From Anaerolineales bacterium (GTDB lineage: Bacteria; Chloroflexota; Anaerolineae; Anaerolineales; Villigracilaceae), in contig JAEURE010000001.1 of assembly GCA_016789485.1 (NCBI GenBank), positions 1-27,781 of the forward strand: 27,781 bases of DNA. The letters are read 5' to 3'. The notes below the pieces were generated by a model. That model was not told the DNA's origin. It saw only the letters and a list, made by a program, of their open reading frames with translations, and did no database searches. Each line of letters opens with the position of its first letter. Position 1 is the first letter of the stretch. A program made the translations under genes and the position numbers. Positions 11,714 through 18,549 of the stretch are shown here, piece after piece.

Positions 11714-13264
11714 ATGTTGATTTTGATCTCCTGCCTTTTACTATTTGTCACAGCGCTGACATTGATCATTTTGCGCGTGCTGCAGCCCACTGCCCGCTAT
11801 ACATGGCTGGTGGCTGCAAGCGGCGGCATTCTATCCTTGTTGAGTGTATTTCTGTGGCTGACGCAAATGCCCTTCGAATTTGTCCTGCCTGCCTGGCAGC
11901 CGGTTTCCTTGTTTGCAACCCCGATCTTATTTCGTGCAGATGAAATTTCCTGGCCTTTCTCAATAAGTATTGCCGCGTTGACTTTGGCTACGGTCTTGAC
12001 GGCTTCTGCGCGCCCGGTCTTTGTTAATGATTTTGCATGGATGGGTGCACTTGCCTTGGGCGGAGTTGGAATTTTGGCGGTAACGGCAGATAATCCGCTC
12101 ACATTATTGCTGGTATGGGCTTTTCTGGATTTGACCGAACTGCTCACGCAATTGCGTTCTGTTGATGGAAAAGCCAACAACGAAAAAGTTGTGATTTCAT
12201 TTTCAACCCGCGCGTTTGGGCTTGCGCTCTTATTGTGGGCAAATATTGTGAGCGCTGGAGAAGGAAGTACAGTCAACTTTCAATCCATGTCGGCAAGTTC
12301 CGGCTTGTTCCTGGTTGCCGCAGCAGGTTTGAGACTGGGAGTGTTCCCCTTGCATCTGCCTTACTCCTCCGAATCGACACTGCGGCGCGGGTTCGGCACG
12401 TCACTCCGTTTGATTTCTGCTGCATCCAGCATGGTGGTATTGGCACACACCCCGGTCGAAAGCTTGAATTCCATTATTACCCCGTTTCTGATAACCCTGG
12501 CATTGATCGCATCCGTTTATGGCGGCTGGATGTGGCTGCGTGCTCCCGATGAGTTGAACGGCCGCCCCTATTGGATCATCAGCCTCGTATCGTTATCCAT
12601 GGTTTCAGCTCTCAGCGGCAACCCAACAGGTGTAATCGCATGGGGCTGCGCATTGATCCTCGTTGGAGGAGCGCTCTTCCTTACTTCAGTACAAATTACC
12701 TGGTTAAATCGTGTCATGCTGATAAGTGTGTGGAGTCTTTCAACATTGCCGTTTTCATTAACGGCAAGTGCGTGGTTGGGCAGGCTGGGAATATTCACTC
12801 CATTTGTCATTGCAACACAAGCATTAACCGTAGCCGGGTTTATCCGCCATGTCGTACGTCCGCCTGAGCGCGAATTGCTCGATACACAACCAGGCTGGGC
12901 ACGTGCTGTGTATCCCACGGGCATTTTTCTTTTGATTATTATGCAGGTGACATTAGGGTTGATCGGCTGGAACGGAGCGCTACAGGTCGGCGCATGGCTG
13001 CAAGCCCTCATCGCTTCTCTCCTGACCTTTGGGCTGGTCTGGGCAACACCACGTTTCCGCATCCTCAACCCGATCCGAGCCCACTGGGTCACTTCCACAG
13101 CATCGCGTTTGAACGGGATCTATCAAGGGTTCTGGACGTTGTACCGTGTACTGGCAAGGCTCAGTCAAGCGATCATCGTCACGCTGGAAGGGGAAGGCGG
13201 CATCATGTGGACATTGCTCTTTCTCGCCCTCTTCGTTTCCATATTAACTCAAGGTTCTCCATAA
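11714..13264 (+). CDS. NuoL/NuoM-like proton-channel family membrane protein
   Basis: Divergent member of the proton-conducting membrane transporter family (NuoL/M/N, MrpA/D, HyfB), the antiporter-like part of complex I and related machines. I start at ATG 11714 (516 aa); an earlier ATG at 11642 adds soluble sequence that runs through the divergent promoters. About 14 hydrophobic segments are visible. Family marks: FRADEISW (73-80, the position of FRVDGLS) and AAGLRLGVFPLHLPYSSE (203-220, the GKSAQFPLHTWLP region). The key TM5 Glu seems replaced in WAFLDLTELL (no WE; D139 and E142 nearby), and the TM7 Lys aligns with R207. Charge-relay chemistry may therefore be altered. It is the first of three tightly packed genes. 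Confidence 0.82.
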   Translation: MLILISCLLLFVTALTLIILRVLQPTARYTWLVAASGGILSLLSVFLWLTQMPFEFVLPAWQPVSLFATPILFRADEISWPFSISIAALTLATVLTASARPVFVNDFAWMGALALGGVGILAVTADNPLTLLLVWAFLDLTELLTQLRSVDGKANNEKVVISFSTRAFGLALLLWANIVSAGEGSTVNFQSMSASSGLFLVAAAGLRLGVFPLHLPYSSESTLRRGFGTSLRLISAASSMVVLAHTPVESLNSIITPFLITLALIASVYGGWMWLRAPDELNGRPYWIISLVSLSMVSALSGNPTGVIAWGCALILVGGALFLTSVQITWLNRVMLISVWSLSTLPFSLTASAWLGRLGIFTPFVIATQALTVAGFIRHVVRPPERELLDTQPGWARAVYPTGIFLLIIMQVTLGLIGWNGALQVGAWLQALIASLLTFGLVWATPRFRILNPIRAHWVTSTASRLNGIYQGFWTLYRVLARLSQAIIVTLEGEGGIMWTLLFLALFVSILTQGSP

Positions 13265-13265
13265 T

Positions 13266-13877
13266 ATGTTGTCCGATACCATTTCCTGGATTGCTGTTGG
13301 GATGATCCTCGCAACATCCACAACCATTCTGATTAATCGCGACTGGCGCATAAGTCTCGGGGCATTGGCTGTTCAGTACGTTTCTGTTTTTTGGCTGGTC
13401 TCACGCCATCTTCCTTTTGTAATGGGCTCGGTCAAACTCATCGCCGGTTGGATGGTCGTAGCCGCACTCGGCATGACCCGCCTTGGATTGACCGATCTTG
13501 ACAATGAAAAAGAAGATACCTTCTGGCCTCGCGGGCAATGGTTCCGATTAATCCTTATCTTTATCGTTGCGCTAGTCACAGCAGGTGCAACCTCACGAAT
13601 CGAAAGCGCCATTCCAGGGCTGGGATTTCCAGTCATTGCAGGCGGTTTATTATTGATTGGTACCGGCGTTGTCCATTTAGGTGTCACTTCAGATCTTTTA
13701 CGCGTAACACTGGGTCTTCTTACCATGCTGGCAGGATTTGAGATCATTTATGCAGCAGTGGAAAGCTCCATCCTCGTTACAGGTTTCCTAGCTCTTACAA
13801 ATTTAGGGCTGGGAATTGTGGGATCCTACCTCCTCGTTGCAGGTTCAACCCCGCTTGAAAGCGAGGAAGAGCTATGA
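13266..13877 (+). CDS. NuoK/MrpC-like small membrane subunit
   Basis: A 203-aa membrane protein with six or so hydrophobic helices. The C-terminal part (about 121-192) has the shape of NuoK/MnhC: a first helix, DLLRVTLGLLTMLAGFEI with a membrane-buried Glu (E159), a second acidic residue E166 and a final helix FLALTNLGLGIVGSYLL. NuoK uses two buried glutamates in the proton path of complex I. The N-terminal ~70 residues (three helices) plus a polar loop (71-95) are extra relative to NuoK, which is about 100 aa. It starts 1 bp after the previous stop and overlaps the next gene by 4 bp (ATGA). The family link is by pattern and position; similarity is weak. Confidence 0.7.
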   Translation: MLSDTISWIAVGMILATSTTILINRDWRISLGALAVQYVSVFWLVSRHLPFVMGSVKLIAGWMVVAALGMTRLGLTDLDNEKEDTFWPRGQWFRLILIFIVALVTAGATSRIESAIPGLGFPVIAGGLLLIGTGVVHLGVTSDLLRVTLGLLTMLAGFEIIYAAVESSILVTGFLALTNLGLGIVGSYLLVAGSTPLESEEEL

Positions 13878-15268
13878 GTGCGCCTCTTCTGTGGATTGTT
13901 GTTCCTTTCCTTGGCGGGGTCTTGATCCTGCTCCTCTTGCGTGAACGTTATTCAGCTTGGGCAGGAGGCGCGTTATCAGCCGTCCTTGCATTGATCGCAT
14001 TGATATTTCCAATAGACACAGCCCTTCTGCTTGGTACGGTCTCACTGAAAATATCCCCATCGATTCAGTTTTTTGGCCGCAGCTTCGAATTCGCCAAGGC
14101 TGATGGTCCTCTGTTAGCGATCATCTATGGGGTGGCTGCATTATGGTTTTTTGGCACGGAAGCGTCCGGTACGGCAAATCGGTTCGTGTCACTTGGCCTT
14201 ATGATCGTATCATTATTAACAGCATCCATCGCCGTTGAGCCGTTTTTGTTTGCCGCACTCCTGCTTGAAATTGCAGCAATGCTTGTGATTCCTCTGCTTG
14301 TGCCGATGTATCAAAAACCCGGCCGAGGCGTCGTGCGCTTTCTCATCTATCAAACGCTTGCCATGCCTTTCATTCTCTTCTCCGGGTGGATGTTGGCCGG
14401 CGTGGAAGCCAGCCCCGGTGATCTAGGCACCACCACACAGGCAGGCACAATGCTTGGGCTGGGATTTGCGTTTCTGCTGGCGGTTTTTCCTCTCTACAAT
14501 TGGATTCCCATGTTGATGGAAGAATCCTCCCCATATGCGACAGGCTTCCTGCTTTGGGCACTACCTACGTTTACAGTCGTTTTCGCGCTCGGCTTTCTGG
14601 ACCGTTATACATGGTTACGCACGACCCCGCAGCTTGCCAGCGCCATTCAATTTGCAGGGATTGTCATGGTCGCAAGCGGCGGCATTTTTGCTTCCCTGCA
14701 GCGTCATATTGGACGAATGCTGGGATACGCAACAATTGCTGAAACAGGGTTATTGATCCTAATCATGGGATTAAGATCATCAGAGATCGTCAACCTTACC
14801 TTTCTTATCCTCATCCCGCGCGGACTGGCTCTGGCAGTTTGGGCGCTGGCGCTATCCATCATCAAACGAAAATCCTACTCCCTGCTTTTCAGTGAAGTAC
14901 AGGGACTTGCCCGCAGTTACCCAATTACGGTTGCCGCGCTTATCCTTGCTCACTTATCCATGGCAGGGTTTCCGCTGCTGGCTGGCTTTCCCGCACGTCT
15001 GGCAATTTGGCAGGAACTGGCGGGGCAATCTTTAAGCACCACTGTATGGGTCTTCGTTGGAATGTTGGGGCTGCTGGTTGCAGCCATTCGCACGCTGGCT
15101 GTCTTTGTCATGGTGGAAGAGCAAAAATGGGGAATAAACGAGTCCTGGGTGCAAATAGCCATGCTTGGGCTGGGAGTGATCGGGCTTTTCATCCTAGGAA
15201 TGTTCCCGCAAATATTACAGCCATTTCTGGCAGACTTGCCTTCCCTCTTCAATCGCCTTGGTCAATGA
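13874..15268 (+). CDS. NuoN/MrpD-like proton-channel family membrane protein
   Basis: Second antiporter-like subunit, 464 aa with about 13-14 helices, resembling NuoN/MrpD. Seen: ASIAVEPFLFAALLLEIAAML with the conserved TM5 Glu (E132), GLGFAFLLAVFPLYNWIPMLMEESSPYATGFL (about 195-226), which matches the FK-x-S-x-x-PFHLWTPD region, and ATIAETGLLILIMG. The TM7 Lys of active subunits aligns with L201, so it appears lost, while Glu is kept; the first subunit shows the opposite pattern. The two could complement each other or work by another route. Start overlaps the previous stop by 4 bp, so the three genes are coupled. No hydrophilic redox or hydrogenase subunit is nearby. Confidence 0.82.
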   Translation: MSAPLLWIVVPFLGGVLILLLLRERYSAWAGGALSAVLALIALIFPIDTALLLGTVSLKISPSIQFFGRSFEFAKADGPLLAIIYGVAALWFFGTEASGTANRFVSLGLMIVSLLTASIAVEPFLFAALLLEIAAMLVIPLLVPMYQKPGRGVVRFLIYQTLAMPFILFSGWMLAGVEASPGDLGTTTQAGTMLGLGFAFLLAVFPLYNWIPMLMEESSPYATGFLLWALPTFTVVFALGFLDRYTWLRTTPQLASAIQFAGIVMVASGGIFASLQRHIGRMLGYATIAETGLLILIMGLRSSEIVNLTFLILIPRGLALAVWALALSIIKRKSYSLLFSEVQGLARSYPITVAALILAHLSMAGFPLLAGFPARLAIWQELAGQSLSTTVWVFVGMLGLLVAAIRTLAVFVMVEEQKWGINESWVQIAMLGLGVIGLFILGMFPQILQPFLADLPSLFNRLGQ

Positions 15269-15383: not shown

Positions 15384-16574
15384 ATGGAATTTGAACAAAT
15401 CGTCAAACGACTCGACTTTCTGGAAAAACAACAGCGTGAAAACAAGGAAACCCTCGGCATATTAAGTGAGCGTTTGACCTCCTTCGAATCCTCGGTTGGT
15501 GTCGTTTCCAAGCAGATCAAATCGATCAGCAAACAGGTAACAGATATAACCCCCGCCACCAAGCGGGTGGAACAGTTCGAAGCCATGCTGACCAAGCAGC
15601 GCAACGAATTGCTCAAACTGATCGAGGAAAAAGAGAAGACGCACACAAAGGCAGAGCGCGATCTGGAAAAAAACTTCCAAACTGAATTTACCGAGGTCAA
15701 CAAAGCTGTTGCCCAATTAAAAACCACCACAGATTTAACCGAGATCAAAAAACAACTCAAGCAGCGGGCGGATGAACTACAACGCCTGGTAAATAACTTC
15801 GCAGACTTAAAAGCGCGCATGGACGAAGTCAAACATACCAACGAAGATGTTCAACATGCCTTGCGGGCTTCTGACGAAGCCCGCAAGAATGACCTGAAAC
15901 GGGTGGCGGATGTTCAAGGCGAGTTAACCTCCCTTCGTAAAAGAATTGACGAGAACCGCGAAAAAACAACCATTACCGCCGACAGCATACGCAACGTTGA
16001 AAACCGTTTCACAGAACTGATCGCATCCGAATTGGAGCGCAAGCAGGCACAAAACGCCTTCATCGAACAACAAGCCGTGGCACAAATTGACCGTGACCGC
16101 GCCTGGAAAGAGTGGAAGGAAAAGTATGAATCCTTCCAAAAAGAAGCCGAGGGTCTTGACGTCCACATCCAAAAATTGGACGAAGCACTTCGCGGCGCAA
16201 AGAAAGCCCAGGATACCTACCTCGAACTCAACACCAAACTGGAACGCCGCATTAACGAAGTAACCGAAATGCAGCGACTGGCTGAAGACCGGTTAAGGCA
16301 GGAATGGATCAGCTTCAAAGCCGATGACCAAAAACGCTGGACAGGGTACAGCCTCTCCGCCGAAGAATCCTTCCGCGACATTCGCAAGGAAGTCCAAAAA
16401 TATGATGACCGCATCACGCCCCTGAACGATATCACCCAGGTCCTGCAAGACCAGATGCACCAAACCACCGACACGACCGAAAAACAATTGCAAGAGTTAA
16501 TGAATGTGGTGCACGAATGGATGACATCCTATCAACGCATCATGGGACACGGCAAGAAGACAACAAAAAAATAA
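15384..16574 (+). CDS. Long coiled-coil protein of unknown function
   Basis: No family recognised. The 396 aa are soluble, highly charged and almost entirely heptad-rich helix, with repeated Leu/Ile at a/d positions from residue 1 (IVKRLDFLEKQQRENKETL) to about 380, and a basic tail HGKKTTKK. There are no TM segments, cysteines, ATP-binding or SMC hinge motifs; few Gly or Pro interrupt it apart from short linkers (for example near DITPA). It could be a filament, scaffold or DNA-associated protein; the Lys-rich C-terminus suggests contact with nucleic acid or membrane lipids, a guess. It has its own extended -10 promoter, a ribosome site (GGAG, 6 nt) and a strong terminator, so it is transcribed alone. 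Confidence 0.85.
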   Translation: MEFEQIVKRLDFLEKQQRENKETLGILSERLTSFESSVGVVSKQIKSISKQVTDITPATKRVEQFEAMLTKQRNELLKLIEEKEKTHTKAERDLEKNFQTEFTEVNKAVAQLKTTTDLTEIKKQLKQRADELQRLVNNFADLKARMDEVKHTNEDVQHALRASDEARKNDLKRVADVQGELTSLRKRIDENREKTTITADSIRNVENRFTELIASELERKQAQNAFIEQQAVAQIDRDRAWKEWKEKYESFQKEAEGLDVHIQKLDEALRGAKKAQDTYLELNTKLERRINEVTEMQRLAEDRLRQEWISFKADDQKRWTGYSLSAEESFRDIRKEVQKYDDRITPLNDITQVLQDQMHQTTDTTEKQLQELMNVVHEWMTSYQRIMGHGKKTTKK

Positions 16575-16653: not shown

Positions 16654-18549
16654 ATGAGAGTTATTGGTACAGCAGGCCACGTAGACCATGGCAAGTCAAC
16701 ACTAATCGAAGCGCTTACCGGCACACATCCAGACCGCCTAAAAGAAGAACAAGCCCGCGAGATGACCATTGAACTTGGTTTCGCGTGGCTGACACTCCCC
16801 AACGGTGAGGAAGTCGGCATTGTGGATGTGCCCGGGCACCGTGACTTCATCGAGAACATGCTCTCAGGTATTAGCGGGATCGATGCGGCATTGCTGGTTA
16901 TCGCCGCCGATGAAGGAATCATGCCGCAGACGAAGGAACATCTGGCAATTTTGGATCTATTGCAGATTCCCGCCGGATTGATCGTCATGACAAAAATAGA
17001 CCTCGCTTCAGACTCAGGGTGGCTTGACCTGCTCGAAGCAGACATTCGCTCCGCTGTGAGCCATACCGTTTTCAAAAATGCGCCGGTAGTCAGAGTCTCT
17101 GCCAGAAATAAAACAGGGCTCAACGAATTAATTTCCTCCCTGGAAAAAATAGTACAGGAGAAACCTGCACGGCTCGACCTAAATCGTCCGCGCCTGCCCA
17201 TTGACCGCGTCTTCAGCATCAGCGGATTCGGCACCGTGGTCACAGGCACGCTTAATGACGGACATCTCTCCATTGGCGATGAAGTGGAAATTCTGCCAAG
17301 CGGGTTGAAAGGCAGGATTCGCGGGCTTCAAACCCATAAGAAAAAAGAAGAAAGAGCAGTTCCCGGCTCACGTACAGCAATCAATATCTCGGGCGTGGAC
17401 ACTGATCTAATTCGGCGCGGCGAAGTCGTCATTCACCCAAATCAATATCAACCCACCCGCAGAATTGATGCACGCTTCCGTTTGCTTAACGATGTTGAAC
17501 TAACCATCAAGCACGGTGATGAAGTGAAATTCTTTGTTGGCGCAAGCGAGACAATGGCAACTTTACGTTTGCTTGGCACGGAAGAATTGAAGGCAGGCGA
17601 AGAAGGCTGGATCCAACTCGAACTGCGCAATCCACTCGTCACAGTACGCGGTGACCGCTATATCCTGCGCCGCCCGTCACCCAGCGAAACCCTGGGCGGC
17701 GGTGCAGTTGTTGACCATCAACCCAAAGGCAGACACAAGCGTTTTGATCAGAGCGTGATTAAATCTTTGGAATCGCTTTCGCAGGGTTCTCCTGCCAGTG
17801 TGTTGATGGAAGCGGCGCTGGCATTGAACGTCTCCTCGTTGAAGGAAGTTATCGCCAAATCCAGGCTGGATACTGCCACGGCTGAAACCGCGCTAAAGGA
17901 ATTATTGGAGAACGGCCAACTTCTCGTTTTGGAAGAAGGCAAGACAGACACAAAAAGTGATGTGCTTGCCATCGCGCTCCCCTTTTGGAACGACCTGCGC
18001 GAGCGCATTGAAACTACTCTTGACATCTTCCATAAACAATTTCCATTGCGGCGTGGCATTCCGCGTGAAGAGTTGAAGAGCAGGCTAAAACTCACGCCGC
18101 GTATTTTCAATGCAGCCGTCAAAAAGCTCGTGGAATCGAACATCCTGACGGATGTGCGGGGAGTTGTATCCCGCCCGGGGCATGAGATCAAGTTCGATGC
18201 CAGTCAGCAGGCCAAGGTCCAGGAGTTGATGCGAAAATTCGCAAAGACTCCGTATGCCACGCCCAGCGTCAAAGAATGTCAGGCGGAGGTTGGCGAGGAA
18301 ATCGTCAACGCGCTGGTTGAAACGGGAGAAATGGTGGCGGTCTCGCAGGATGTTATTTTCCGCAAGCAGGATTATGACAGGATGGTGGAAAAAATAAAAT
18401 CTGCCATTCAGCAAAAAGGACAGATTACGCTTGGCGAAGTGCGCGATATGCTTGATACAACCCGCAAATATGTTCAGGCTTTATTGGAGCACTTGGACTC
18501 AATCGGTGTGACCATGCGAGATGGGGATGCAAGAAAGTTGAGAAAGTAA
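16654..18549 (+). CDS. selB: Selenocysteine-specific translation elongation factor
   Basis: SelB brings selenocysteyl-tRNA(Sec) to UGA codons marked by a SECIS hairpin. The 631 aa contain an EF-Tu-like GTPase: G1 GHVDHGKST (8-16), switch region REMTIELGF, G3 DVPGH (58-62) and G4 TKID (113-116; SelB often has T for N). Beta-barrel domains 2 and 3 follow (RVFSISGFGTVVTGTL near 191; RGDRYILRRPSPSETLGGG near 330), then C-terminal winged-helix repeats (about 370-631) that bind the SECIS RNA. Length fits the family. It implies that the organism makes selenoproteins, although selA, selD, tRNA-Sec and any recognisable selenoprotein lie outside the window. The sensor kinase begins at the base after its stop codon. 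Confidence 0.96.
   Translation: MRVIGTAGHVDHGKSTLIEALTGTHPDRLKEEQAREMTIELGFAWLTLPNGEEVGIVDVPGHRDFIENMLSGISGIDAALLVIAADEGIMPQTKEHLAILDLLQIPAGLIVMTKIDLASDSGWLDLLEADIRSAVSHTVFKNAPVVRVSARNKTGLNELISSLEKIVQEKPARLDLNRPRLPIDRVFSISGFGTVVTGTLNDGHLSIGDEVEILPSGLKGRIRGLQTHKKKEERAVPGSRTAINISGVDTDLIRRGEVVIHPNQYQPTRRIDARFRLLNDVELTIKHGDEVKFFVGASETMATLRLLGTEELKAGEEGWIQLELRNPLVTVRGDRYILRRPSPSETLGGGAVVDHQPKGRHKRFDQSVIKSLESLSQGSPASVLMEAALALNVSSLKEVIAKSRLDTATAETALKELLENGQLLVLEEGKTDTKSDVLAIALPFWNDLRERIETTLDIFHKQFPLRRGIPREELKSRLKLTPRIFNAAVKKLVESNILTDVRGVVSRPGHEIKFDASQQAKVQELMRKFAKTPYATPSVKECQAEVGEEIVNALVETGEMVAVSQDVIFRKQDYDRMVEKIKSAIQQKGQITLGEVRDMLDTTRKYVQALLEHLDSIGVTMRDGDARKLRK

What the first reader, a model, noticed from the sequence alone, without database searches (positions are those of the whole stretch)
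11714..15268. Orphan three-gene NuoL/K/N-like cluster with altered charge residues
Three tightly coupled genes (1-bp gap, then a 4-bp overlap) encode two antiporter-like subunits and one NuoK/MrpC-like subunit, but no quinone-, NADH-, hydrogenase- or carbonate-linked (DabA) partner is present. By my eye alignment, the first subunit lacks the TM5 Glu but has Arg (R207) at the TM7 Lys position; the third keeps the Glu (E132) and has Leu (L201) at the Lys position. The NuoK-like protein carries about three extra N-terminal helices. This may be a stripped ion-translocating module with an unknown energy source or a cation transporter, and is the best candidate here for an undescribed system.
Basis: partly seen in the sequence, partly recalled or inferred. 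Interest (0 to 1): 0.72.

Follow-up and report, generated by a model that had tools for sequence, protein, structure and literature searches.

The report
Stand-alone complex I-like membrane trio
Three neighbouring genes encode a complex I-like membrane module that is widespread in one class of bacteria and is kept even in a genome without the electron-transfer parts such modules normally need, so its power source and cargo are open questions.

The parts
11714..13264 (+). Gene A: NuoL-type antiporter-like subunit, 516 aa, with an amphipathic helix and a terminal TM helix
12128..12130 (+). A D139 (TM5), one helical turn after the lost canonical Glu position (A136)
   Evidence: D in 60 of 60 homologues; acid at position 136 in 0 of 60.
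12332..12334 (+). A R207, aligned with NuoL K229 (TM7)
   Evidence: R in 60 of 60; mapping.
13082..13261 (+). A residues 457-516: about 36-residue helix (lateral-helix-like) plus terminal TM with the LEGEGG..W motif
   Evidence: Helices 457-492 and 494-512 in the model; blocks of ten at pLDDT 51-77, residues 458-465 under 50. W499 60 of 60, E492 56 of 60.
13266..13877 (+). Gene B: N-terminal MbhD/NuoJ-like part plus a C-terminal half that may be NuoK-like, 203 aa
13434..13436 (+). B K57 (third helix)
   Evidence: K in 50 of 58.
13740..13742 (+). B E159 (GFE motif); with E166 the conserved acids of the C-terminal half
   Evidence: E 42 + D 8 of 58; E166 51 of 58.
13874..15268 (+). Gene C: NuoN/NuoM/MrpD-like antiporter subunit, 464 aa
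   Evidence: PF00361 52.7 bits. Profile hits 6u8y_X 1.4e-26 and NuoN 8e9g_N 3.9e-26.
14267..14269 (+). C E132 (canonical TM5 Glu)
   Evidence: E in 32 of 49.
14474..14476 (+). C L201 at the canonical TM7 Lys
   Evidence: Lys/Arg in 0 of 49; L 34 of 49.
15384..16574 (+). Coiled-coil soluble protein next door; frequent neighbour, not shown to be a subunit
   Evidence: Directly downstream of C in 40 of the 69 co-linear loci; not found in the fetched stretch in 24 of 69.

Best explanation
The trio encodes one autonomous membrane complex, A-B-C, of the complex I / Mrp / group-4-hydrogenase superfamily. A is a NuoL-type subunit whose lateral helix could clamp the assembly. B (MbhD/NuoJ-like part plus a possibly NuoK-like half) would link the two antiporter-like subunits. 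C is a NuoN/MrpD-type subunit. Shown: homology of A and C, fold of A, conserved gene order, presence in a closed genome without NuoH, NuoD or other PF00361 proteins, invariant D139/R207 in A, loss of the TM7 Lys in C. Inferred: the three assemble; the complex is driven by an ion or proton gradient instead of electron transfer; it exchanges or conducts an ion through a rearranged charge path (A D139-R207, B K57/E159/E166, C R281/R375). Because TM7 has Arg in A and mostly a hydrophobic residue in C, a canonical Lys-relay proton pump is unlikely.
For: Co-linear A-B-C in 69 of 74 fetched A loci, in varied contexts. B in 197 of 247 class genomes, 4 of them with two matches. G295 (1 contig, 99% complete) carries the trio (L115) with no PF00146 and no PF00346 hit, and C is its only PF00361 hit. 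G347 (95% complete) also has only C as PF00361 hit. In the other 8 of 9 genomes, NuoH and NuoD genes number two each, three each in G020 and G048, as two complex I sets plus a hydrogenase-4-type set would need. Fold of A. Residue invariance across homologues as low as 17% identical. Isolated complex I antiporter modules conduct protons in liposomes (PMC11496545, abstract and passages).
Against: No transport was shown. Arg at 207 is a poor proton carrier and C lacks its central base, so the trio may not transport at all. The Glu of MrpA that I take for its essential E706 aligns with Gly61 of B (9 bits; E706 equivalence recalled). Outside the class most fetched relatives do carry a HyfG/NuoD-like gene (9 of 13). 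In G025 a NuoCD-type gene (2468189) lies away from both fetched nuo clusters; I assign it to complex I only by inference. In 4 of 74 loci A lies apart from B-C, and in L113 another gene lies between B and C, which weakens the case for an obligatory co-translated complex. Single-chain models cannot show assembly.
Confidence: 0.5

Rival explanations
1. A gradient-consuming conduit, like DAB: the trio lets protons or ions flow inward to drive an unlinked or unknown soluble partner. The downstream coiled-coil protein is a weak candidate.
For: DabB2 likewise has a NuoL-like fold with a short lateral helix and lacks the regulatory ion pairs, and is described as part of a pmf-driven system (PMC13144422, passages). 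The coiled-coil gene is next door in 40 of 69 loci.
Against: DabA absent in 10 of 10 genomes. The coiled-coil gene was not found in the fetched stretch in 24 of 69 co-linear loci, and in 4 loci it sits with SelB away from the trio. No constant partner was seen in the 47 loci laid out.
Confidence: 0.25
2. A redox-driven group-4-hydrogenase, Ehr or complex I-type enzyme whose catalytic subunits are encoded elsewhere or borrowed from complex I.
For: Outside the class a HyfG/NuoD-like gene is in 9 of 13 fetched loci, and 6 of those 9 keep both CxxC pairs; L148 also has a NuoB-like gene. Class genomes carry complex I and sometimes a group-4 complex, and in G025 one NuoCD-type gene lies apart from the fetched nuo clusters.
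Against: G295 has the trio but no PF00146 and no PF00346 hit. In the other 8 genomes the gene numbers leave no spare NuoH or NuoD. The Pfam models do detect the divergent HyfG and NuoB-like proteins of L148, so a miss is informative for NuoD; PF01058 was not searched genome-wide and a strongly diverged NuoH could be missed.
Confidence: 0.12
3. A degenerate, non-transporting relative kept for a structural, regulatory or assembly role.
For: Canonical TM7 Lys lost in C (0 of 49 Lys/Arg); canonical TM5 Glu lost in A (0 of 60 acidic at 136).
Against: D139, R207 and W499 invariant in 60 of 60. B in 197 of 247 class genomes. Kept in G295, which has no NuoH or NuoD hit, so not a complex I assembly factor there.
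Confidence: 0.13

Closest known systems
Group-4 [NiFe]-hydrogenase-type complexes and their Ehr relatives (Hyf, Mbh, Mbx)
   Same: Antiporter-like A and C. B's N-terminal part matches MbhD and B is co-linear with HyfE, weakly. Outside the class, 9 of 13 fetched B-C loci carry a HyfG/NuoD-like gene.
   Different: No catalytic, NuoB-like or NuoH-like subunit beside the trio in the class loci laid out (with L119 as noted), and no PF00146/PF00346 hit in G295.
Mrp (CPA3) cation/proton antiporter
   Same: Redox-free. In L156, outside the class, a stand-alone trio has an A whose best NCBIfam score is to an MrpA model (131.6 bits, cut-off 937), with canonical E136 and K207.
   Different: No MrpB/E/F/G counterpart seen next to the trio. 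MrpA's Na+ path Glu aligns with Gly61 in B (weak). No TM7 base in C; Arg instead of Lys in A.
Complex I membrane arm (NuoJ, K, L, N)
   Same: A folds like the complex I antiporter subunits, with NuoL-like length; C's profile hits NuoN among its best.
   Different: Two antiporter-like subunits and one small subunit; no NuoH, NuoA or peripheral arm beside it.
DAB (DabA/DabB)
   Same: Antiporter-fold protein with a short lateral helix and lost ion pairs, no redox part (PMC13144422, passages).
   Different: No DabA in 10 of 10 genomes; two antiporter-like proteins plus B instead of one DabB.

Membership tests
Complex I (membrane arm) | NuoH and NuoD/B present for quinone and redox coupling | tested here: not met
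   Not beside the trio (L119 exception). G295 has the trio with no PF00146 and no PF00346 hit. PF01058 not searched genome-wide.
Complex I (membrane arm) | TM5 Glu and TM7 Lys in each antiporter-like subunit | tested here: not met
   A: position 136 acidic 0 of 60, 207 Arg 60 of 60. C: 132 Glu 32 of 49, 201 Lys/Arg 0 of 49.
Complex I (membrane arm) | Antiporter-subunit fold; lateral helix as in NuoL | tested here: met
Mrp (CPA3) antiporter | Operon with MrpE, F, G and B parts | tested here: not met
   No further membrane subunit conserved next to the trio. A separate Mrp operon exists in G025 (L106).
Mrp (CPA3) antiporter | Essential MrpA-C Glu (E706) of the Na+ path | tested here: inconclusive
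Mrp (CPA3) antiporter | Na+(K+)/H+ exchange activity | not testable with these tools
   Needs an assay.
Group-4 hydrogenase / Ehr complex | HyfG/NuoD-like large and HyfI/NuoB-like small subunit | tested here: not met
   Not beside the class trios laid out; PF00346 absent from G295. Outside the class: large subunit in 9 of 13 fetched loci, small in 1 of 13.
Group-4 hydrogenase / Ehr complex | MbhD/NuoJ-like and NuoK-like small membrane subunits | tested here: inconclusive
DAB inorganic carbon system | DabA (PF10070) | tested here: not met
   0 of 10 genomes; the control rang in B. subtilis and H. volcanii.

The most novel reading that the evidence does not exclude
An undescribed membrane machine, widespread in one bacterial class, made of a NuoL-fold subunit, a small J/K-type subunit and a NuoN-type subunit. 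It runs with no electron transfer and no carbonic-anhydrase partner, and uses an invariant Asp-Arg pair instead of the canonical Glu-Lys pair: a new kind of gradient-driven transporter that in some organisms is the only antiporter-like system in the genome.
Probability: 0.4. Interest if true: 0.8.

Novelty: new variant of a known kind. Interest (0 to 1): 0.6.

Why it matters
[quoted passage not shown] Here such a module is found without its redox engine in about four fifths of the class genomes searched, with the canonical charge pairs rewired. That is a natural test of which residues a stand-alone module needs. It may also reveal a new transporter family in Anaerolineae-type bacteria, including one closed genome with no sign of complex I's NuoH or NuoD.

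Full report
WHAT IS THERE. Three co-directional genes at 11714-13264 (A, 516 aa), 13266-13877 (B, 203 aa) and 13874-15268 (C, 464 aa), separated by 1 bp and then overlapping by 4 bp. Upstream and divergent lies a DUF3048 gene; downstream a coiled-coil protein gene and a SelB gene (TIGR00475, 361.9 bits, cut-off 242). Pfam and NCBIfam recognise only C (PF00361, 52.7 bits; the NCBIfam scores are far below their cut-offs) and give nothing for A or B at E <= 1.

RESIDUES. In one search, NuoL E144, K229, K305 and K399 fall on E132, L201, G280 and R375 of C; E144 and K229 fall on A136 and R207 of A. Counts: A136 acidic 0 of 60; D139 60 of 60; R207 60 of 60; W499 60 of 60. C: E132 32 of 49; position 201 Lys/Arg 0 of 49 (L 34, W 6, others 9, one of them His); R281 42 of 49; R375 38 of 49 plus K 4 and H 3. 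B: K57 50 of 58; E159 42 plus D 8 of 58; E166 51 of 58. It lacked D139, which sits one helical turn from the canonical Glu and could pair with R207 (inference). Arg is a poor proton shuttle (general knowledge), so a classic Lys relay in A is unlikely, and C lacks the middle base.

HOW CONSERVED IT IS. With the single A protein, 49 of 61 genomes (own, genus and order) match. Among 74 fetched loci with A (the window and 73 others), 69 have A, B and C in order on one strand; in one of these, L113, another gene lies between B and C. L040 is cut by a contig end. In L127, L128, L131 and L134 A lies alone; B is found elsewhere in the same four genomes, with C next to B in the three of them fetched (L143-L145). 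An order-level A profile finds 59 of 296 class genomes at 1e-10. The wider B profile finds 197 of 247 at 1e-5 (163 of 209 good-quality genomes; 122 of 151 genera).

IS IT REALLY ALONE? In the 47 loci laid out the flanks differ with no constant partner. Exceptions to tell: L119 has ordinary complex I NuoCD and NuoI genes on the opposite strand nearby. L043 and L044 have an MrpA-like gene (by eye) several kb away on the opposite strand. The coiled-coil gene follows C in 40 of 69 loci; it was not found in the fetched stretch in 24. In nine genomes searched for NuoH and NuoD, six have two genes of each, G020 and G048 three of each, and G295 (one contig, 99% complete) none. C is G295's only PF00361 protein. 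G347 (110 contigs, 95%) also has only C; it was not searched for NuoH/NuoD. G311, G285 and G304 in the same search have 12, 4 and 4 PF00361 matches, so absence of complex I is not general. I checked by neighbourhood only the NuoH genes of G025 and the hydrogenase-type sets of G020 and G048; one NuoCD gene of G025 lies apart from the fetched nuo clusters, and its assignment to complex I is inference. DabA is absent in 10 of 10. Pfam models detect the divergent HyfG- and NuoB-like proteins of L148, a positive control for those two; a strongly diverged NuoH could be missed.

RELATIVES WITH A REDOX PART. A phylum search with B found 65 of 301 genomes. Of 13 fetched loci outside the class (L148-L160), 9 have a HyfG/NuoD-like gene (L148-L154, L157, L160), 1 a NuoB-like gene (L148) and 7 an unassigned 7-TM protein. 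The A-like gene between HyfG and B was read in six of the nine (L148, L149, L152-L154, L157). Six of the nine HyfG-like proteins keep both CxxC pairs of the hydrogenase large subunit; L151, L152 and L153 have lost one cysteine of the first pair. So these relatives look like group-4-hydrogenase-type large subunits, some on the way to the Ehr kind, which lacks the metal ligands (Ehr as described in PMC6349859, passages). L155, L156, L158 and L159 show no HyfG in the stretch fetched. L156 is a stand-alone trio whose A keeps E136 and K207 and scores best with an MrpA model. The C tree separates canonical subunits (100/100), puts the five redox-linked sequences used in one clade (100/100) and places L156 next to the class trios (96/83). 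L158/L159 fall on the canonical side, so whether the redox part was lost or gained is open.

MECHANISM. Best reading (0.5): an autonomous A-B-C transporter powered by a gradient. Isolated complex I antiporter modules do conduct protons (PMC11496545, abstract and passages). Mrp shows that the superfamily can exchange ions without redox chemistry (PMC7419157, passages), and DAB that a NuoL-fold protein without the regulatory ion pairs can serve a pmf-driven system (PMC13144422, passages). Shown: homology of A and C, fold of A, linkage, presence without NuoH/NuoD in one closed genome. Inferred: assembly, transport, ion, direction.

NOVELTY. Seven paper searches (open-licence PMC papers only, listings read) showed no description of such a trio. 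This does not exclude subscription papers. I rate it a new variant of a known kind.

Noticed in passing
window 15384-16574 and 16654-18549: A soluble coiled-coil protein and SelB follow the trio in many same-order genomes; in L034, L038, L119 and L136 the coiled-coil gene sits with SelB away from the trio.
   Followed up: partly
L127, L128, L131, L134 and L143-L147: In two families A is separated from B-C in the genome; in L128 and L131 A is followed by a different membrane protein that looks like DUF2085 (by eye).
   Followed up: partly
L148-L154, L157, L160: HyfG/NuoD-like genes next to A-B-C homologues, 6 of 9 with both CxxC pairs and 3 with one cysteine lost, and a NuoB-like gene found in only 1 of the 9: possibly a degenerating hydrogenase-type complex.
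   Followed up: partly
L148, L149, L154, L157 (272-286 aa ORF near C): A conserved 7-TM protein of unknown family, found in 7 of 13 outside-class loci; in the four read, what look like ABC transporter genes lie beside it (by eye). Not recognisable as NuoH.
   Followed up: partly
L048 (G016:C2:1966785-1968322): Gene A is split over two frames in one genome, a frameshift or assembly error.
   Followed up: no
L103-L106 (G025, G020): Same-genus genomes also carry two complex I gene clusters (one with two NuoM-like subunits), an Mrp operon and, in G020, a hydrogenase-4-like set.
   Followed up: no
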